37,119 nucleotides of DNA from an uncultured Clostridia bacterium (GTDB lineage: Bacteria > Bacillota > Clostridia > Oscillospirales > QAMX01), in NCBI GenBank assembly GCA_944380935.1, contig CALWJF010000067.1:1-37119 (forward strand), written 5' to 3'. Positions within the stretch are counted from its first letter, which is position 1; each line of letters opens with the position of its first letter. Below, one piece after another: positions 18,176-26,796 of the stretch. The notes under the pieces are model-generated. The model was not told where the DNA came from. It saw only the letters and a list, made by a program, of their open reading frames with translations, and ran no database searches. The position numbers were made by a program, and so were the translations under genes.

Positions 18176-20014
18176 ATGAAGAAAGATATACTTCGTATTT
18201 CGGTTGGCGCAATATTTTTTCTCTGTGCGTTACTGATTCGGCCCGTCCCGGAGTCCGTTACAATTTTACTGTATGCTTTGGCTTATTTTATCTGCGGCGC
18301 GCCCGTGCTGTATCAGGCATTACGCAATATCCTTCGCGGTCGTATTTTTGATGAAAATTTCCTTATGGCAATTGCCTCTTTGGGTGCATTCCTAATCTCT
18401 GAATATCCGGAAGCAGTCGCCGTTATGATTTTTTACCAGATCGGCGAAATGTTTGAACACTATGCAGTATCTCGTTCCCGCCGTTCCATTGCAAGTCTAA
18501 TGCAGATCCGCCCGGATCATGCGAATGTCCGGCGGGAAGGCGGCGTACGGACTGTGGCGCCGGAGGAGGTTTCAGTCGGCGAAGAAATTGTGGTGCGGCC
18601 CGGCGAGAAAATCCCGCTCGACGGTTATGTAATCGAAGGCATTTCTGCGCTGGATAGTTCTGCATTGACCGGTGAAAGCCTTCCGCGCGACGTCGTACCG
18701 GGCGATGAAGTGCTTTCCGGCTGTGTCAATCTCAGCGCCGTATTGACGGTGCAGGTCGAGCGGGCGTTCCATGATTCTACCGTCAGCCGGATCCTGGATC
18801 TTGTGGAAAACGCTGCGGCGAAAAAATCTGCTTCGGAAAACTTCATTTCCCGGTTTGCCGCCGTCTATACGCCGGCTGTTGTCACAGCTGCGGCGCTGCT
18901 GGCGCTGATCCCATCTCTGATTACCGGACAATGGAGCGTATGGGTATATCGTGCGCTGAACTTTCTGGTTGTTTCCTGTCCCTGCGCGTTGGTTGTTTCC
19001 GTTCCGCTTTCTTTCTTCGGTGGAATCGGAGGTGCATCCCGTGCCGGAATCCTTGTTAAAGGCGGGAACTATCTGGAAGCGCTGGCAAATACGGAAATAG
19101 TCGTATTTGATAAAACCGGTACGCTGACCGAAGGTGTTTTTGAGGTTAGCGCAGTGGAACCGGTTGGGATAGAAGCCGGCCAGCTGCTTCATTATGCCGC
19201 CGCGGCCGAACATTTTTCCAGCCATCCGATTTCCCAGTCCATCCAAAAAGCTTATGGCAATGCGGTTGACGAAACTACCGTTCGCGGTGTCCGGGAAATC
19301 CCAGGGCAGGGAATCGAAGCCCAAGTCGACGGCGTACCGGTCTGGGTTGGCAACGACAAGCTCATGCAAACGCTTGGTATCCGTATTCCTCCGGTTCAGG
19401 GTTCCGGTACCATTGTATATGTGGCACGTGACGGTACATACTGCGGTTTGATCCGCATTTCCGATCGGATAAAACCGGACGCAAGCCAGGCGATCCGTCA
19501 GCTGCGTGCCTGCGGCGTAAAAAAACTCTACATGCTTTCCGGCGACCGCAAACAGACTGCACAGGAAGTCGGCAGGCTGCTGCAACTTGACGGCGTATAC
19601 GCCGAACTGCTTCCTGCCGATAAGGTCGAAGCATTAGAACAAATTGAAACGCAAAAATCTGCACACGGGAAACTTGCCTTTGCCGGCGACGGTATCAATG
19701 ATGCGCCGGTACTGGCACGTGCCGACATCGGGGTTGCAATGGGCGCACTGGGTTCGGATGCCGCCATCGAAAGCGCAGACGTCGTGCTTATGAATGACCA
19801 GCCTTCCCGTCTTGCTACTGCAATTGAAATTGCCCGGCGTACTGTGCGCATTGTCCGGCAAAACATCGTCCTTGCATTGACGGTAAAGGCAGCCGTCTTG
19901 ATCCTATGCGCCGTAGGCGTCACCGGAATGTGGGCCGCTGTATTCGCCGACGTCGGCGTAATGTTCCTGGCAGTATTGAATGCTTTGCGTGCGCTGCGCA
20001 GATTGGAACAATAA
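18176..20014 (+). CDS. cadA: Heavy-metal-translocating P-type ATPase (CadA/ZntA-like)
   Basis: This membrane pump exports Zn2+, Cd2+ or Pb2+ using ATP. The 612-residue chain starts directly with the membrane region, without an HMA domain. Present in order are the actuator TGES-type loop (SALTGESLP), the transport-site SCPCALVV with the CPC motif at about 268-270, the phosphorylation site DKTGTLTEG with Asp near 312, the HP motif (FSSHPISQSI), the nucleotide-binding GTIVYVARDG, and GDGINDAPVLA. The CPC motif and HP pair place it in the P1B group. Zinc/cadmium specificity is inferred from the CadA-like layout and from the CzrA-type zinc site of the nearby regulator. It is co-transcribed with the HMA protein. 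Confidence 0.94.
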   Translation: MKKDILRISVGAIFFLCALLIRPVPESVTILLYALAYFICGAPVLYQALRNILRGRIFDENFLMAIASLGAFLISEYPEAVAVMIFYQIGEMFEHYAVSRSRRSIASLMQIRPDHANVRREGGVRTVAPEEVSVGEEIVVRPGEKIPLDGYVIEGISALDSSALTGESLPRDVVPGDEVLSGCVNLSAVLTVQVERAFHDSTVSRILDLVENAAAKKSASENFISRFAAVYTPAVVTAAALLALIPSLITGQWSVWVYRALNFLVVSCPCALVVSVPLSFFGGIGGASRAGILVKGGNYLEALANTEIVVFDKTGTLTEGVFEVSAVEPVGIEAGQLLHYAAAAEHFSSHPISQSIQKAYGNAVDETTVRGVREIPGQGIEAQVDGVPVWVGNDKLMQTLGIRIPPVQGSGTIVYVARDGTYCGLIRISDRIKPDASQAIRQLRACGVKKLYMLSGDRKQTAQEVGRLLQLDGVYAELLPADKVEALEQIETQKSAHGKLAFAGDGINDAPVLARADIGVAMGALGSDAAIESADVVLMNDQPSRLATAIEIARRTVRIVRQNIVLALTVKAAVLILCAVGVTGMWAAVFADVGVMFLAVLNALRALRRLEQ

Positions 20015-20035
20015 CTACCTGTTATTTTTAAGCCC

Positions 20036-20075
20036 AACCCCCCTGGCAGAATCTAAAAAATCTGCCAGGGGGGTT
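20036..20075. terminator. Terminator between the ATPase and arsR genes
   Basis: A perfect 15-base-pair stem (20036-20050 with 20061-20075), then GAATTTTTC on the plus strand. It lies between the convergent ATPase and arsR genes. The minus-strand side is less U-rich (GGGCTTAAAAATAAC). Confidence 0.9.
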
Positions 20076-20132
20076 GAATTTTTCATTTTGCTGTAAGTTT
20101 TAAAGTGCAGGTTCCGTAAGGCAAACCAATTC

Positions 20133-20498
20133 CTACAGTCCTTTTTTATGCCGGACATGCACAAGCGTCGTATGCAGCACATCCACAACATGCTGATCGT
20201 CTAAAGAATAATAAATATTTTTTCCTGCTCGACGCGCTTTAACCAAACCCTCGCCCCGAAGAAAGCGCAGCTGATGCGATACCGCTGACTTTGTCATGGC
20301 AAGCGAAGCTGCCAGATCGCCAACACAAACCTCATGCTGTGCTAATGCATAGAGAATGCGCATCCGGGTCGGATCGGAAACTGCTTTACAAAATGCCACC
20401 GCGCCTTCCAATAGCGCCGGCGTCAGCATATTGGCCCGAATTTCGGCTACCGCCTGCACATCTACAATTGGCGCTTGCTCTCCTTTTCGCACTGTCAT
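20133..20498 (-). CDS. ArsR/SmtB-family metal-sensing repressor (CzrA-like zinc site)
   Basis: This winged-helix repressor of 121 residues would release DNA on binding metal. It shows the ArsR core: FCKAVSDPTRMRILYALAQHEVCVGDLA, then the recognition helix TKSAVSHQLRFLRGEGLV and the wing RRAGKNIYYSLDD. The alpha-5 metal site Asp101, His103, His114, His117 has exactly the spacing of SmtB and CzrA zinc sites. The alpha-3 site of CadC (CxC) is reduced to Cys58-Val-Gly60, so cadmium/lead sensing through alpha-3 is unlikely. I chose ATG 20498 for its GGAGGGGGA ribosome site; the longer open frame adds 43 unlike residues. It converges on the ATPase gene it most likely controls. Confidence 0.92.
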   Translation of the reverse strand: MTVRKGEQAPIVDVQAVAEIRANMLTPALLEGAVAFCKAVSDPTRMRILYALAQHEVCVGDLAASLAMTKSAVSHQLRFLRGEGLVKARRAGKNIYYSLDDQHVVDVLHTTLVHVRHKKGL

Positions 20499-20583
20499 CG
20501 CGTCCTTTTCCCCCTCCGTTTTTCTGCATCCATGCACAGCCGCCCACACGCTCCGGTTTTCCAGGGACAGTTCCTTTTTTTCT

Positions 20584-20611
20584 ATTATCGCACATTCCGA
20601 AAAGTTTACAA
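20584..20611 (-). promoter_or_regulatory. Promoter of the arsR-family gene
   Basis: On the minus strand: TTGTAA (20611-20606), a 16-base spacer, GATAAT (20589-20584), 85 bases before the start codon. It is divergent from the promoter of the TerB-domain gene about 60 bases away. Confidence 0.6.
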
Positions 20612-20671
20612 GAGTGTTTCCCTGCAAAATCTGTTTTTTGTTGCCAACCTCGGAAATACCACAAATCTTTC

Positions 20672-20700
20672 TTGTAAAAATAAGCGTGTGTTGCTATAAT
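20672..20700 (+). promoter_or_regulatory. Promoter of the TerB-domain/ATPase unit
   Basis: TTGTAA (20672-20677), a 17-base spacer and a perfect TATAAT (20695-20700). The gene starts only 27 bases later, leaving a leader of about 20 bases and no room for a riboswitch. Confidence 0.8.
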
Positions 20701-20726
20701 AAATAGAATAAGGATGGTGAAACTGT

Positions 20727-22979
20727 ATGGATGGACCTTTTTATGACATAAAAATTCCGCGCCGCCCTTCCGAACAAACCTGTCCGGAAGACTTTGCCAT
20801 ACATTTCGCCTTTTTAAGACAACGAGGTGTGCTGCGTCTGGATCTTCACGGAGACTCCATGCCGCTGCAATACAGCGGTAAGGGGCGTATTTTGCTGCAA
20901 AATGGATTTTTCCGGATTGCACAGCTGGCTACGCTTGACCCTTTCCTGATCGAACGCCGCTTTATCCCGTCTAAATTTTTCAAAATCTTTTTCCGCGTGC
21001 AGTATCCCAAAATTTCTGCCTGCGGATGGCCGGTTACAAGCGAACTGACGATGGAAAAAACACCGGCCCTGCAGCTGTGCATCGATACCACAGATCCAGG
21101 GAACCCTGTATGCAACGTGCGCTGGAATATCCGCCGGGAAGCATTTTCTTTTCTCGATGGGTTTGAAGAATATGTGATCTGTGATGGCTGCTGCTATCCT
21201 GGTCCGCGTTCAGTTCTCAATACCGTGGCGCACCTATCCGACGGAATACACAAACTCGATGAAGCTATGCTTACCGCTCTGCGCCGCCATTATCAGGACG
21301 CGCCTTACCTGTTCACGCTTCAGGGAGAGGACCCAAGAAAAGCGAACCTTCCACACCGCGCCAATCCGCAGATACACAAAAATCCATCCGTCAATCCGGT
21401 CATCCAACAAACGTTTTCAGATATTTTGGATTTGAGCGATTCCCGTCCTGCTGCCGCACCTCCGGAACGCAATTTGGCCGGCAGCAGTATACCGTCTGCT
21501 CCGCCCAAAAAGATTTCCATGGACGGGCCTGCGCTGTTATCTTTTTCCCATACAGCCAATATACGCGCGGAAAATGGGAAATTTTCTTTCTTCACCATTG
21601 AAGCCCGTCGTTTTGCCGAATATCGTCCGGAAAAAGCGGAATTTGTACCTTTTACCTGCTATTGGCCGATCTATTCTAAAATGTCGCGTGAACAACGCGC
21701 CTGGTATTTTTACTGGCGCGACCAGTTTCGGCAGAGAAATGCATTAAAAACCGATCTTTCTTATATTTTTGTTTGCATTTATGAACTGATCAACCGTGCG
21801 TACGGGAGCGTAGAGGAGGGATTGGATACCCTTTTTTCGCTTTGGCGCACGTATCGCAAACCCTTCCCGCGGCTGGATTACTATATGCCGGTTTACTGTG
21901 CTGATTATATGATTTTAAACGGGTTGCACAACCGGCTGGGAGAAATACAACAGCACTTTTCCCTCGCGCCCGGTTCCATGCGCCCTTTTGCCGAACTTTA
22001 TATCAACGATTTGCTGCGCGAAGGTTTGCATGCTCTTCCGTTTGAGTTATTGTGCGAGCTGTCTGATTATAAGCTTCTGCAAAGCCGCTTCTATCAGCAG
22101 CAGCCTGAATTATGCCAAGATATGATACGGCAGGTTTTATCCGAACTCGATCATGCCATGCGTGCGGCAAAAAATCAACCTTTGCTTTCTGCGTTTTCTC
22201 CGGCACCGGTAACTATAAACTGGACCGCATATTCCGGAGCCGTCTGCGGCCGCAGCGCAGCACGGCAAATCTGTGCACAATATATTCCCTATACCGGCGA
22301 CCCCGCCATACGAACATTTCTTACCGGTGTCTTCAAACACACGGAAAACGGCCTGCGCAAACGTTCAGGTTATGCCGGACGCTTACGCGGTTATACCCTG
22401 AGCCAACCGGTTTGTACACTCATTGACCGTGTTACCGGCGTTTCCAGTGTTAAAGCAGCCGCTCATACCGACCACTCCCCATCCGTGCAGACACCGCAGC
22501 CAATCGAAATTGACTTGGAGGCCGCAAAAAAATTGGAGCTTGCGTCCTGGGAAAACACGAAAAGACTCATTGATGCGGTAGAATCCACACAGCAGACGCC
22601 GCAGGATGCAGATATTCTGTCTCCAACGGTTACACCTCTTCCCACGTCCGTCCCCCAGATGCCGGAACAGACGCAGGTTTCTCTTCCTGCCGATTTTTCG
22701 CAATATGCGGACGCTTATACAGCGTTTGCCGCCGCGCTTTCGCAATTTCAGCGCACGTTTTTATCTGCATTGCTTGACGGGGCATCCTATGATACCCTAT
22801 CTACGTTGGCGGCCCGGGAATTTTCTTTTCCGGAAGCCGTTTTCGAAACGTTGAACGAACTGGCGCAAAGCTGCATCGGCGATCTGATTCTGGCGCCGGA
22901 CAGCGGAGAAATTTATGAAGAACATAAGCAGGCGCTTCAGCATGCGCTTGCCGAATCAACAGGAGGACCCAATGGCTGA
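20727..22979 (+). CDS. TerB_N and TerB_C domain protein
   Basis: This cytosolic protein of 750 residues has no membrane segment or signal peptide. Residues 1-220 are not recognised. After a low-complexity linker, a TerB_N domain spans about 290-480; its signature is SKMSREQRAWYFYWRDQFRQ near 317, followed by TDLSYIFVCIYELIN. A TerB_C domain covers about 595-745 (LEAAKKLELASWENTKRLI onward, ending CIGDLILAPDSGEIYEEHKQAL). These domains are known from comparative genomics of Ter-linked stress and defence systems; their molecular role is unclear. The stop codon lies inside the start of the ATPase gene (8-base overlap), so the two products probably act as one complex. It is not a classic small TerB tellurite protein. 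Confidence 0.85.
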   Translation: MDGPFYDIKIPRRPSEQTCPEDFAIHFAFLRQRGVLRLDLHGDSMPLQYSGKGRILLQNGFFRIAQLATLDPFLIERRFIPSKFFKIFFRVQYPKISACGWPVTSELTMEKTPALQLCIDTTDPGNPVCNVRWNIRREAFSFLDGFEEYVICDGCCYPGPRSVLNTVAHLSDGIHKLDEAMLTALRRHYQDAPYLFTLQGEDPRKANLPHRANPQIHKNPSVNPVIQQTFSDILDLSDSRPAAAPPERNLAGSSIPSAPPKKISMDGPALLSFSHTANIRAENGKFSFFTIEARRFAEYRPEKAEFVPFTCYWPIYSKMSREQRAWYFYWRDQFRQRNALKTDLSYIFVCIYELINRAYGSVEEGLDTLFSLWRTYRKPFPRLDYYMPVYCADYMILNGLHNRLGEIQQHFSLAPGSMRPFAELYINDLLREGLHALPFELLCELSDYKLLQSRFYQQQPELCQDMIRQVLSELDHAMRAAKNQPLLSAFSPAPVTINWTAYSGAVCGRSAARQICAQYIPYTGDPAIRTFLTGVFKHTENGLRKRSGYAGRLRGYTLSQPVCTLIDRVTGVSSVKAAAHTDHSPSVQTPQPIEIDLEAAKKLELASWENTKRLIDAVESTQQTPQDADILSPTVTPLPTSVPQMPEQTQVSLPADFSQYADAYTAFAAALSQFQRTFLSALLDGASYDTLSTLAAREFSFPEAVFETLNELAQSCIGDLILAPDSGEIYEEHKQALQHALAESTGGPNG

Positions 22980-24300
22980 AACGATTCAGAATGTCCCAAA
23001 ACGAATCTCCGGTGCAATCCTCAATTCCCTCGCTTCCGGCGTCGTTCCCCGCACCGGGCTTGAATACATTGCAATTGGCCGTACCCGGGAAATCGCGGCA
23101 ATATTGGAGGACCTGGATACAGTGGCCGAAGGCGGCAGCGCATTCCGGATGATTTCCGGACGTTATGGTTCGGGAAAAAGCTTTTTGATCCAGCTGATGC
23201 GTTCCCATGCTATGGAACGCGGCTTCGCAGTTGCCGACGCAGACTTGTCGCCGGAACGCCGGCTTGCCGGGTCTAACCGCCAGGGACTTGCTACGTACCG
23301 GGAGCTGCTGCGCAATTTATCTACGCGCGCCGCACCTGACGGCGGTGCCTTGCCGGTAGTGCTGGCACGTTGGATCTCCAAAATCCAGGTATCCCTTGCC
23401 CGGGAAAAAAATCTGGCGCCGGGAAGCCAGGCGCTGGCCGATGCTGTCGAAGTCGAAATCATGGCGCAGATCGCCAGCTTGGAGACGCTTGTCCACGGTT
23501 TTGACTTTGCAACGGCAGTCCGCTGCTTCTACCGGGGGACAGTAGAAGGGGACGATGAACGCCGGCAGGCAGCACTGCGCTGGCTTCGCGGAGAATTTGC
23601 AACCAAAACGGAAGCCAAATCCCTGCTTCCCGTTTCCGGTATTATCGAAGATGCAAGCTGGTATGACTATCTCAAACTCATCGGTGAGCTGATGAAGCTT
23701 GCCGGACACACAGGTTTTATCGTTTTTATTGACGAAGCTGTGAACCTGTATAAAATCACCCAATCGGTATCCCGCGAAGCGAATTATGAAAAACTGCTGA
23801 ATATTTTCAATGACGCAACCCAGGGACGCCTTTCGGGTATGGCTTTTATCTTCGGCGCAACACCCCAGTGTATTGAAGACCAACGCCGCGGATTTTATAG
23901 TTATGAGGCACTCCGTTCGCGTCTGTCCGGGTCCCGATTTGCCCAGGCGGGTATTGTGGATTTTTCTGAACCGGTAATCCGCCTGCAGCCCTTGACGCCG
24001 GAAGAAATCACCGCACTTTTGAAGCGTATCCTCTATATTCATTCCCGGCATTTTGACTGGGACCCGCAGGTTACCGACGAACAGATTGCTGCACTGGTGA
24101 AGAACCTCGCCGGGCGCATGGGCGCAGAAGCGCTGTTGACGCCGCGGGAAATCGTACGGGATTTTACCGGCCTGCTGAATATTCTCCGGCAAAACCCTTC
24201 CGAAAGCTTTGACTCTCTGGCCGCCCGGCTCGATATCCGTCCTGCCGATGCCGAAGCTTCGCAGGATAAAACCAATCCCTATGCAGAATTTACGCTCTAG
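22972..24300 (+). CDS. DUF2791/BREX_ATP_bind (BrxD-like) P-loop ATPase
   Basis: This 442-residue ATPase begins with a helical segment (PKRISGAILNSLASGVVPRTGLEYIAIGR), then Walker A GRYGSGKSF (63-71) and Walker B FIVFIDEAVNL near 250-260. A sensor-like FIFGATPQCIED follows, then an arginine-rich stretch (YEALRSRLSGSRFA) and a C-terminal RLQPLTPEEITALLKRIL/LTPREIVRDFTGLLNIL lid typical of the family. The P-loop family includes BREX BrxD. ATG 22972 is chosen for its AGGAGGA site and because homology begins at IQNVPKRISGAILNSL; the frame opens earlier inside the TerB gene. Overlap with that gene implies coupled translation. No helicase, PglZ, methylase or nuclease is next to it, so this is not a BREX locus. 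Confidence 0.87.
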   Translation: MAETIQNVPKRISGAILNSLASGVVPRTGLEYIAIGRTREIAAILEDLDTVAEGGSAFRMISGRYGSGKSFLIQLMRSHAMERGFAVADADLSPERRLAGSNRQGLATYRELLRNLSTRAAPDGGALPVVLARWISKIQVSLAREKNLAPGSQALADAVEVEIMAQIASLETLVHGFDFATAVRCFYRGTVEGDDERRQAALRWLRGEFATKTEAKSLLPVSGIIEDASWYDYLKLIGELMKLAGHTGFIVFIDEAVNLYKITQSVSREANYEKLLNIFNDATQGRLSGMAFIFGATPQCIEDQRRGFYSYEALRSRLSGSRFAQAGIVDFSEPVIRLQPLTPEEITALLKRILYIHSRHFDWDPQVTDEQIAALVKNLAGRMGAEALLTPREIVRDFTGLLNILRQNPSESFDSLAARLDIRPADAEASQDKTNPYAEFTL

Positions 24301-24394
24301 GGGAAAAGATAAATCCATATTGTTTTTTTCGGCATTTATTGCAAGGCGCAAATGAATACAATGTACCGATTCTTAAAAAGGCGGTGCATACTCT

Positions 24395-25123
24395 TTGTTC
24401 AAAATCTGGCTTTTTACCTTGATCGGTACTTTCGCCGGCGTTGTCGGTACCGGCGCCGGCGGCGCAATGGCGTTTGCGTTTCCCGCGCGTGAGGGAAAAT
24501 TTGGACAGCTATTGGATTTTTCTGCCGGACTCATGCTGGCCATTGTCTGTTTTGACCTGTTGCCGGAAGCATTTTCCCTCGCCGCGTTGCCGATTGTCCT
24601 TATGGGCGTCCTGTTAGGGGCAGGCATTGTGCTGCTGGTCAGCCGTTTTGATACGCATACGCATGGAATGCCGCGCAACACTTTCCGTTTAAGCGCATTG
24701 AGTATCGTACTCGGCATCGCAGTCCATAATTTTCCTGAAGGACTGGCAATCGGAACAGCATTATGTGAAAATTTCCAATTGGGCCTTGCGTTGTGCCTGA
24801 CAATTTTTATCCATGATCTTCCCGAAGGGATCAGCGTAGGACTGACCTTGCGGGTCAGCGGCACATCGTTTGCAAAAGCGACGGCCATCGCCGCGCTGGC
24901 CGGTCTCAGCACCGGTGTTGGCACCGGCATCGGAGCCGCGGCCGGCGCATTGTCTCCGGCAGTCAGTGCACTGTGTCTGGCAAGTGCCGCCGGAGCAATG
25001 CTCTATCTTGTGCTCGGACAGATGCTGCCGGAAGCCGACCGACTGCTTTCCACGCGCTCGCCGCGGCTTTTCGGCATCGCGGGCGTGGCGGCCGGAATGG
25101 CGCTGCGCGTTCTTTTACACTAA
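24395..25123 (+). CDS. ZIP family divalent metal transporter
   Basis: This membrane protein of 242 residues has about eight hydrophobic segments and both ZIP signature motifs: HNFPEG at 111-116 in segment 4 and HDLPEG at 140-145 in segment 5, which form the binuclear metal site. A short DTHTHGMP loop may bind metal on the cytoplasmic side. ZIP proteins usually bring Zn2+, Fe2+ or Mn2+ into the cytoplasm. The start is a TTG (24395) because no in-frame ATG or GTG precedes it; AAGGCGG lies about 10 bases upstream. It heads the run of genes to 31621, though its own promoter is not obvious in the 94-base gap before it. Confidence 0.93.
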   Translation: MFKIWLFTLIGTFAGVVGTGAGGAMAFAFPAREGKFGQLLDFSAGLMLAIVCFDLLPEAFSLAALPIVLMGVLLGAGIVLLVSRFDTHTHGMPRNTFRLSALSIVLGIAVHNFPEGLAIGTALCENFQLGLALCLTIFIHDLPEGISVGLTLRVSGTSFAKATAIAALAGLSTGVGTGIGAAAGALSPAVSALCLASAAGAMLYLVLGQMLPEADRLLSTRSPRLFGIAGVAAGMALRVLLH

Positions 25124-25146: not shown

Positions 25147-26796
25147 ATGGAAACACAAATTTTTAAAATCGAATCACCTTGCGCCGATGCAGAAGCACTT
25201 GAACAGGCCGGCGCAATCATACAAAATGGCGGGCTGGTTGCATTTCCCACAGAAACCGTATACGGCTTGGGCGGAAATGCGCTGGACGCAGCGTCTTCGG
25301 CCAAAATTTTTTCTGCTAAAGGACGGCCGCAGGATAATCCCCTGATCGTCCATATTGCGGATATGGAACAGCTGGATGTTCTGTGCCACGATATCCCCGA
25401 CGCAGCGAGAGCGCTGGCAAACGCCTATTGGCCGGGTCCGCTGACCATGGTTTTGCCGAAAAATAACTGTCTTCCCGATACAACCACCGCAGGACTTGAT
25501 ACCGTGGGAATTCGGATGCCAGCGCATCCCGTCGCCCGCGCCCTGATCCGCTGCGCAGGCGTTCCCATCGCCGCGCCATCCGCAAACCGTTCCGGCAAAC
25601 CCAGCACCACCAGCTTTGCCCACGTCCTGCGCGACATGGAAGGCCGGATCAATGCGATTATTGACGGCGGGAAATCGGAAGTCGGACTGGAATCGACAGT
25701 TATTGAATTTGACGGCAACCGGGCACGCATCCTGCGTCCCGGATACATAACGCAGGAAGATATTGAAGCTGTACTCGGCCCCGGTATGTGCCTGATCGCA
25801 CCGGGCGTACGCGAACATGTCGCCGACGGCGAACGGGTACGCTCACCCGGAATGAAATACCGACATTATGCGCCCTCTGCCCCGGTCCTAGCCATTTGCG
25901 GGGAAGCGCGCGATGTCGCGCGGGAAATGCAGCGCCGTGCCCGCGGCCATGAAAATTGTGCCGCCATCATCTGCGATGAATATGCGCAGGCTCTCCCCTG
26001 CCGAACCATTGCCTGCGGGCCGCAGGGCGATTACGCCGCACAGGCGCACCGGCTCTTCGATGCGCTGCGGCAGCTGGACCGTCCGGAAATTGATTTTATC
26101 CTTGCTCAATGCCCGGACGAATACGGCCTGGGTATGGCCATTGCCAATCGTTTGAAACGTGCCGCTGCTTTCCATGTCGTACAGGCACGGCACGGTTGTG
26201 TCCTTGGTTTAACAGGTCCGACCGGTGCCGGAAAAAGCGCTGCCTGTGCCGTTTTCGCCGAGCGGGGCGCGCAGATTCTTGACTGCGACGCGCTTTACCA
26301 CAAAATGCTGGAAACCGACGAAACACTGCTGAAAACGCTGTACGAAATCTTTCCTTCCGCCTTCAGGGACGGCCAATTTGACCGCCATGCCTTAGGAAAA
26401 CTGGTCTTTTCCGATCCGGCAGCACTTGCGCAACTCAATGCCGCCGTGCTTCCGCTTGTCCGCACACGTGTGGAAACGGAAATCACACGTGCGGATGCTT
26501 CCGGTACCGATGTCCTTGTCCTTGATGCACCGACACTGTTTGAAAGCGGGATCGACGCGCTGTGCGATTTTACGCTGGCTGTACTTGCACCGCCGCAATT
26601 GCGTATTGCACGCATCAGCGCGCGCGATGGGCTCGACGGTGCTTATGCCCGCTTACGTGTGGAAGGCGGGCAGGATGACGATTTCTATTTGACCCGTTGC
26701 GATGCGTCCGTAGTCAATGACGGACGTCTTGAAACCTTACGCGCACAAATTCAAACCATATGGGATAGATTATTTTACGGAGGTAAAAAATCATGA
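25147..26796 (+). CDS. Fused threonylcarbamoyl-AMP synthase (Sua5) and dephospho-CoA kinase (CoaE)
   Basis: Two complete enzymes lie in one 549-residue chain. Residues 1-345 are Sua5: the YrdC domain with PTETVYGLG (34-42), KGRPQDNPL (58-66), PSANRSGKPS, then the linker SPGMKYRHYAP and the Sua5 C-terminal domain. It makes threonylcarbamoyl-AMP for the t6A37 tRNA modification. Residues from about 352 are CoaE: GLTGPTGAGKS (P-loop 357-364), DCDALYHKML, VLVLDAPTLFESG and a helical end, performing the last step of coenzyme A synthesis. The frame is continuous, and the CoaE part has no Met at its natural start, so this is a true fusion rather than two overlapping genes. It overlaps the M18 gene by 4 bases. 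Confidence 0.93.
   Translation: METQIFKIESPCADAEALEQAGAIIQNGGLVAFPTETVYGLGGNALDAASSAKIFSAKGRPQDNPLIVHIADMEQLDVLCHDIPDAARALANAYWPGPLTMVLPKNNCLPDTTTAGLDTVGIRMPAHPVARALIRCAGVPIAAPSANRSGKPSTTSFAHVLRDMEGRINAIIDGGKSEVGLESTVIEFDGNRARILRPGYITQEDIEAVLGPGMCLIAPGVREHVADGERVRSPGMKYRHYAPSAPVLAICGEARDVAREMQRRARGHENCAAIICDEYAQALPCRTIACGPQGDYAAQAHRLFDALRQLDRPEIDFILAQCPDEYGLGMAIANRLKRAAAFHVVQARHGCVLGLTGPTGAGKSAACAVFAERGAQILDCDALYHKMLETDETLLKTLYEIFPSAFRDGQFDRHALGKLVFSDPAALAQLNAAVLPLVRTRVETEITRADASGTDVLVLDAPTLFESGIDALCDFTLAVLAPPQLRIARISARDGLDGAYARLRVEGGQDDDFYLTRCDASVVNDGRLETLRAQIQTIWDRLFYGGKKS

What the first reader, a model, noticed from the sequence alone, without database searches (positions are those of the whole stretch)
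20672..24300. Two-gene TerB_N/TerB_C plus DUF2791 ATPase unit without its usual partners
A 750-residue TerB_N/TerB_C protein and a BrxD-like P-loop ATPase overlap by 8 bases and share one promoter. Both families are linked by comparative genomics to stress or phage defence, often beside a superfamily II helicase or inside BREX loci. Here there is no helicase, PglZ, methylase or nuclease. The first 220 residues of the TerB protein match nothing I know. The unit may be a minimal defence or DNA-surveillance complex, or the remnant of a larger one.
Basis: partly seen in the sequence, partly recalled or inferred. Interest (0 to 1): 0.72.

Follow-up and report, generated by a model that had tools for sequence, protein, structure and literature searches.

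The report
Shango defence system split in two
The two genes are two-thirds of a known bacterial anti-phage system called Shango; its third gene, a helicase, lies elsewhere in the same genome beside housekeeping genes, and this split has happened repeatedly in related bacteria without the helicase being lost.

Summary
In detail: sngA (20727-22979) and sngB (22972-24300) overlap by 8 bases behind one promoter-like site, with no helicase in the window. The interpretation (minimal two-gene system, or remnant) is not supported. PADLOC profiles identify the pair as SngA (E 8e-62) and SngB (E 2e-168) of Shango, a tested three-gene anti-phage system. The missing part, the SngC helicase, is in the same genome on another contig (E 2e-260, full length), between cvpA and lgt in a run of housekeeping genes. 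Both half-loci are syntenic in a second genus, so the split is inherited and not an assembly accident. Across 295 genomes of the order, SngB occurs in 66 and SngC in 65 of those (the other has a fragment). In 15 of the 66 the helicase is on another contig; trees need at least 7 split/adjacent changes (5-6 forced by strongly supported branches), and SngB and SngC distances correlate at r = 0.87 in split genomes. What is new is the arrangement: a recurrently dispersed Shango, which locus-based detection would call incomplete. Defence activity here is inferred, not shown.

The parts
20672..20700 (+). promoter-like site for sngAB (TTGTAA-17-TATAAT, extended -10)
   Evidence: consensus match only (6 found, 5.0 expected in shuffles), but placed 27 bases before the sngA start
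20727..22979 (+). sngA: TerB_N/TerB_C protein of Shango, 750 aa
   Evidence: TerB_N E 9e-28; PADLOC SngA E 8e-62; full-length relatives
20754..21296 (+). SngA N-terminal domain (about residues 10-190), beta-rich, specific to this family and some long SngA forms
   Evidence: profile also hits L193, L143, L133; predicted fold, most ten-residue blocks at pLDDT 70-90
21606..22082 (+). TerB_N domain (residues 294-452)
   Evidence: pLDDT above 90 over most of it
22680..22961 (+). C-terminal TerB_C-like region (residues 652-745), weakly winged-helix-like
   Evidence: best Z 6.4, FixJ; suggestive only
22961..22966 (+). ribosome-binding site AGGAGG of sngB, inside sngA
22972..24300 (+). sngB: BrxC/BrxD-type P-loop ATPase of Shango, 442 aa
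   Evidence: SngB E 1.6e-168, 559 bits, against BrxD 190 bits
23158..23181 (+). SngB Walker A, GRYGSGKS
   Evidence: invariant core in the alignment
23725..23745 (+). SngB Walker B region, FIDEAVN

Best explanation
The pair is SngA and SngB of a complete, apparently intact Shango anti-phage system whose third gene, the SF2 (Lhr-like) helicase sngC, has been moved to a second chromosomal locus. Shown: all three genes are in one genome, full length with intact ATPase and helicase motifs; the two half-loci are each syntenic in two genera; splitting recurs and the helicase is kept. Inferred: SngA and SngB, translated from overlapping genes, form a sensor/adaptor plus AAA+ ATPase complex. It recruits SngC in trans onto phage DNA or phage replication intermediates. 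SngC then unwinds or strips them, blocking phage replication without a dedicated nuclease. In this lineage sngC lies 40 bases behind cvpA in a housekeeping run, so it may be expressed constitutively while sngAB has its own promoter.
For: Identity: PADLOC SngA E 8e-62 and SngB E 1.6e-168; SngC E 2e-260 over positions 4-715 of 720; motifs intact. Shango as a TerB + ATPase + helicase system with tested anti-phage activity: PMC10250203. Co-occurrence: the same 17 of 59 relatives carry A, B and C. Order-wide, 66 have SngB and 65 of them SngC, and the last has a fragment; in 15 of 66 it is on another contig. Split not an artefact: in all 15 the positions and contig lengths leave no room for sngC next to sngB. 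Synteny: sngAB-(ZIP)-sua5coaE-pepM18 and cvpA-sngC-lgt-folD recur in G005, G012 and G017. Repeated origin: at least 7 changes on each tree, 5 (SngC) and 6 (SngB) forced by starred branches. Matched partners: SngB/SngC distance correlation 0.87 in 15 split genomes, 0 of 2000 permutations as high. Constraint: dN/dS about 0.06-0.13 for sngA, sngB and sngC where it could be computed, and SngB more conserved than most neighbouring housekeeping proteins.
Against: No experiment on this system; anti-phage action rests on homologues in Pseudomonas and E. coli. These are MAGs (this one 87% complete, 113 contigs), so the real distance between the loci is unknown, though it exceeds about 17 kb from contig lengths. 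One Lachnospiraceae MAG (L163) has sngAB and no SngC found at E 1e-60. G168 has sngC and no sngB. The mechanism (complex formation, helicase action on phage DNA) is inference; no SngA or SngB relative has a solved structure detectable by sequence.
Confidence: 0.85

Rival explanations
1. A domesticated Shango: the same three proteins now serve mainly chromosome maintenance (helicase plus ATPase handling of stalled forks or recombination intermediates), with phage defence secondary. Both halves sit among core genes and are inherited vertically.
For: Both half-loci lie beside core genes in several lineages: lgt/cvpA and sua5coaE, alaS, rny and spoIIE. Conserved over two genera, low dN/dS for sngB and sngC, no SngB in IMG/VR contigs.
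Against: Patchy presence across the order (66 of 295) and in the family (11 of 21) is unlike an essential housekeeping gene. SngA is fast-evolving (45% identity to G017 while SngB is 80%), as expected in an arms race. Homologues are tested anti-phage systems (PMC10250203).
Confidence: 0.25
2. One reading: sngAB is a self-sufficient two-gene defence or DNA-surveillance unit that does not need a helicase.
For: No helicase within the window; one MAG (L163) shows sngAB without a detectable SngC.
Against: SngC is in the same genome and in essentially every SngB genome of the order. The separated copy is the phylogenetically matched partner.
Confidence: 0.05
3. A decaying remnant of a larger system that lost its partners.
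For: The pair stands without its usual neighbour in the window.
Against: All motifs intact, strong purifying selection in close relatives, partner present, the same arrangement conserved in four genomes of two genera.
Confidence: 0.03
4. Part of a BREX or BREX-like system.
For: SngB matches Pfam BrxC_BrxD and NCBIfam BrxD.
Against: NCBIfam BrxD score 191.7 against a cut-off of 350; SngB model scores 559 against 190 bits for BrxD; no PglZ in the genome.
Confidence: 0.02

Closest known systems
Shango (sngABC), P. aeruginosa PA14 and E. coli (PMC10250203; second report by Millman et al. cited there)
   Same: All three protein families at full length, and the sngA-sngB order and overlap or near-overlap.
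   Different: sngC is not downstream of sngB but in a distant housekeeping locus; SngA carries an extra N-terminal domain of about 190 residues; the genes sit in core chromosome, not in a defence hotspot.
BREX (BrxC/BrxD ATPases, BrxHI helicase)
   Same: SngB is a BrxC/BrxD-family ATPase; SngC groups with BrxHI, DruE and DpdJ helicases in a published tree (PMC12278908).
   Different: No PglZ in the genome; BrxD equivalog cut-off not reached.
Hachiman (HamAB) as a functional parallel
   Same: A helicase used as DNA sensor in defence (PMC12278908); weak sequence match of SngC to HamB (E 1e-4).
   Different: Hachiman has a nuclease effector, and no nuclease domain was found in SngA, SngB or SngC.

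Membership tests
Shango | SngA (TerB-domain protein) | tested here: met
   PDLC03958 E 8.2e-62, profile 81-525 of 528
Shango | SngB (ATPase) | tested here: met
   PDLC03959 E 1.6e-168, profile 4-438 of 439
Shango | SngC (DEAD/DEAH helicase) in the genome | tested here: met
   E 2e-260, profile 4-715 of 720, on contig C96
Shango | the three genes side by side (usual arrangement; not shown to be essential for function) | tested here: not met
   sngAB on C67, sngC on C96, both with long flanks; adjacency holds in 75 of 80 loci from other genomes
Shango | anti-phage activity | not testable with these tools
   needs a phage challenge; shown for homologues in PMC10250203
BREX | PglZ phosphatase | tested here: not met
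   no match in the genome (87% complete)
BREX | BrxD equivalog score | tested here: not met
   191.7 bits against a cut-off of 350
Lhr-like SF2 helicases (for SngC) | sequence similarity to Lhr and YprA | tested here: met
   5v9x E 5.5e-28, 7lhl E 2.6e-27, YprA 6znp E 4e-25 (the name Lhr for 5v9x and 7lhl is my knowledge; the tool says ATP-dependent DNA helicase)
SNF2-type ATPases (for the N-terminal part of long SngA) | SNF2 fold or homology | tested here: inconclusive
   L133, E 0.012; hhalign E 4.7e-4 but probability 32%; ZorD Z 3.7, rmsd 8.0; Walker A absent

The most novel reading that the evidence does not exclude
In this Clostridial order Shango has repeatedly been dismantled into two chromosomal loci, and its helicase has become a core-genome gene shared between defence and chromosome maintenance, so the system is a domesticated genome-surveillance machine rather than a mobile defence cassette.
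Probability: 0.25. Interest if true: 0.65.

Novelty: new variant of a known kind. Interest (0 to 1): 0.45.

Why it matters
Detection tools for multi-gene defence systems rely on gene neighbourhood (PADLOC states synteny requirements, PMC9252829), and surveys read solitary or incomplete defence genes as erosion or non-defensive roles (PMC10924106). Here an apparently incomplete locus is a complete system, and in this order about a quarter of Shango systems (15 of 66) would be misread that way. The split also gives natural evidence that SngC can act in trans and that SngA-SngB is the unit that stays together, which bears directly on the unknown Shango mechanism.

Tried and rejected
BREX membership: rejected. 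Two-gene or remnant reading: rejected. Split as a contig-break artefact: checked for all 15 genomes from positions and contig lengths, rejected; G002 looked split but sngB itself is cut by a contig end and its tail adjoins sngC, so it was counted as adjacent. Solved structures of SngA or SngB by sequence: none. Foldseek for SngA: nothing significant; VIA-align gave only middling matches for the C-terminal region (Z up to 6.4, DNA-binding HTH proteins), so DNA binding is a hint only. N-terminal domain: Foldseek nothing significant; best VIA match ZorD, Z 3.7 at rmsd 8.0, too weak to use alone. SngB in viral contigs: none. Literature: no open paper found reporting a dispersed Shango; the library lacks most subscription journals, and the Millman et al. 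paper was not among the results.

Full report
OBSERVATION. The window holds two overlapping genes as described: 20727-22979 (750 aa) and 22972-24300 (442 aa from the start with a ribosome-binding site), behind a promoter-like site at 20672-20700. Pfam confirms TerB_N in the first (E 9e-28) and BrxC_BrxD in the second (E 2e-154). TerB_C is not reached by Pfam in this protein, but is found in homologues, and the corresponding C-terminal region is conserved and confidently folded.

IDENTITY. PADLOC's profiles name the two proteins SngA (E 8e-62) and SngB (E 1.6e-168, 559 bits, against 190 for BrxD). These are two of the three parts of Shango, described as a TerB-like protein, an ATPase and a DEAD/DEAH helicase, with 10-100-fold plaque reduction for many phages in P. 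aeruginosa PAO1 (PMC10250203). It is not BREX: the NCBIfam BrxD cut-off is missed and the genome has no PglZ.

THE MISSING HELICASE. A search of the window's own genome found SngC at G000:C96:21689-23983, full length, E 2e-260. It lies in a run of housekeeping genes: ECF transporter parts, truA, DUF5711, cvpA, sngC, lgt, folD, a cyclophilin, gdpP, a 146-aa gene (probably rplI, not tested), dnaB, tilS, ftsH. The contigs are 37.1 kb and 28.0 kb with the genes well inside, so the loci are at least about 17 kb apart. Helicase motifs are intact (ASGKTE, DEIH, SAT, QRMGRTGR). Its nearest solved relatives are Lhr-type DNA helicases, and published phylogeny groups SngC with BrxHI, DruE and DpdJ (PMC12278908).

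IS THE SPLIT REAL? Three genomes of another genus in the family (G005, G012, G017) have the same two half-loci: sngAB-(ZIP)-sua5coaE-pepM18 and DUF5711-cvpA-sngC-lgt-folD. Other members of the family keep lgt-folD and sua5-pepM18 without the sng genes there. So the arrangement is inherited and not an assembly accident.

HOW GENERAL IS IT? In 59 relatives exactly the same 17 carry A, B and C. In 295 genomes of the order 66 have SngB; 65 have SngC at E 1e-70 or better and the last (G097) has a fragment next to SngB. In 15 of the 66 SngC is on another contig, always with flanking sequence that excludes adjacency. Fisher's test for those 15 alone against genomes lacking either gene gives p = 6e-21; this ignores shared ancestry. 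Trees of SngC and SngB need at least 7 changes between split and adjacent, 5 and 6 of them forced by starred branches. In 80 loci from a broad set of genomes (Paenibacillus, Clostridia, cyanobacteria, Chloroflexi and others) 75 have SngC directly downstream, so adjacency is the likely ancestral state; I did not infer the direction formally. Of the five exceptions, two are cut by contig ends, one is the split genome G019, a Symploca MAG has SngC on another contig, and a Lachnospiraceae MAG (L163) has none detected.

ARE THE SEPARATED GENES PARTNERS? Patristic distances of SngB and SngC correlate at r = 0.87 among the split genomes, 0 of 2000 permutations as high; the value is 0.59 among 34 adjacent ones. 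Within the window's family the two trees agree closely. Between close relatives dN/dS is about 0.06-0.13 where it could be computed. SngB (80% to G017) and SngC (74%) are more conserved than most housekeeping neighbours, while SngA is only 45%. That pattern, conserved motors and a fast sensor, fits a working defence system better than a remnant.

WHERE THE HALVES WENT. Independent splits put the halves beside different core genes: sngAB beside alaS (G186, G247) or rny (G048, with the same neighbours in G025), near dprA (G102); sngC beside lgt/cvpA, a VanY-type peptidase and spoIIE (G186), a MATE transporter (G102).

SngA N-TERMINUS. The ~190-residue N-terminal domain occurs in all family members with a long enough sequence, and weakly in SngA of L193, L143 and L133. 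Its model is beta-rich with most blocks at pLDDT 70-90. In SngA forms of 930-1230 aa the N-terminal region looks like a degenerate SNF2 ATPase without Walker A: Pfam SNF2 E 0.012 in L133; hhalign with Paenibacillus-group SNF2 helicases E 4.7e-4 over 229 columns but probability only 32%; best structural neighbour of the window domain is ZorD, at a weak Z 3.7. I treat this as a lead, about 40% likely.

MECHANISM. Shown: the components, their intactness, their linkage in evolution. Inferred: SngA-SngB is a sensor/adaptor plus AAA+ ATPase complex, translationally coupled through the overlap; SngC joins in trans and unwinds or strips phage DNA; no nuclease domain was seen in any of the three, so interference with replication is more likely than cleavage. 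Confidence in the identification is about 0.95, in a trans-acting complete system about 0.85, in the helicase-blocks-replication step about 0.4.

VERDICT. The pair is not a new minimal system. It is a known system in a dispersed form that recurs in this order, which I did not find described in the open literature searched. New variant of a known kind; moderate interest, mainly for how defence systems are counted and for the Shango mechanism.

Noticed in passing
G129:C52, G283:C161, G269:C34 (L108, L124, L112): Three genomes of one family carry two tandem sngC helicases after sngB, 41-47% identical to the window genome's SngC.
   Followed up: no
L076:14017-19056 (G035): A 1679-aa protein with a C-terminal REase_MTES_1575 nuclease domain starts 3 bases after an adjacent-type sngC.
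   Followed up: no
L133, L142, L143, L156, L194 (SngA genes): SngA forms of 930-1230 aa have a long N-terminal region that looks like a degenerate SNF2 ATPase without Walker A.
   Followed up: partly
L073:4958-6223; L067:9070-9876; L095:2430-4372: Extra genes sit between sngA and sngB in a few genomes: a GH39-like protein, GNAT acetyltransferases, DUF3990.
   Followed up: partly
L078 (G045): An adjacent-type sngABC lies near gdpP, dnaB, tilS and ftsH relatives, the same core region in which the window genome's sngC lies; it may mark an older site.
   Followed up: no
window 18176-25123: sngAB is flanked by metal-handling genes: a P-type ATPase, an ArsR regulator and a ZIP transporter; ZIP stays next to sngAB in two genomes of the sister genus.
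   Followed up: partly
window 25147-26796: Sua5 and CoaE are fused in one gene here and in the sister genus, separate in most of the family.
   Followed up: no
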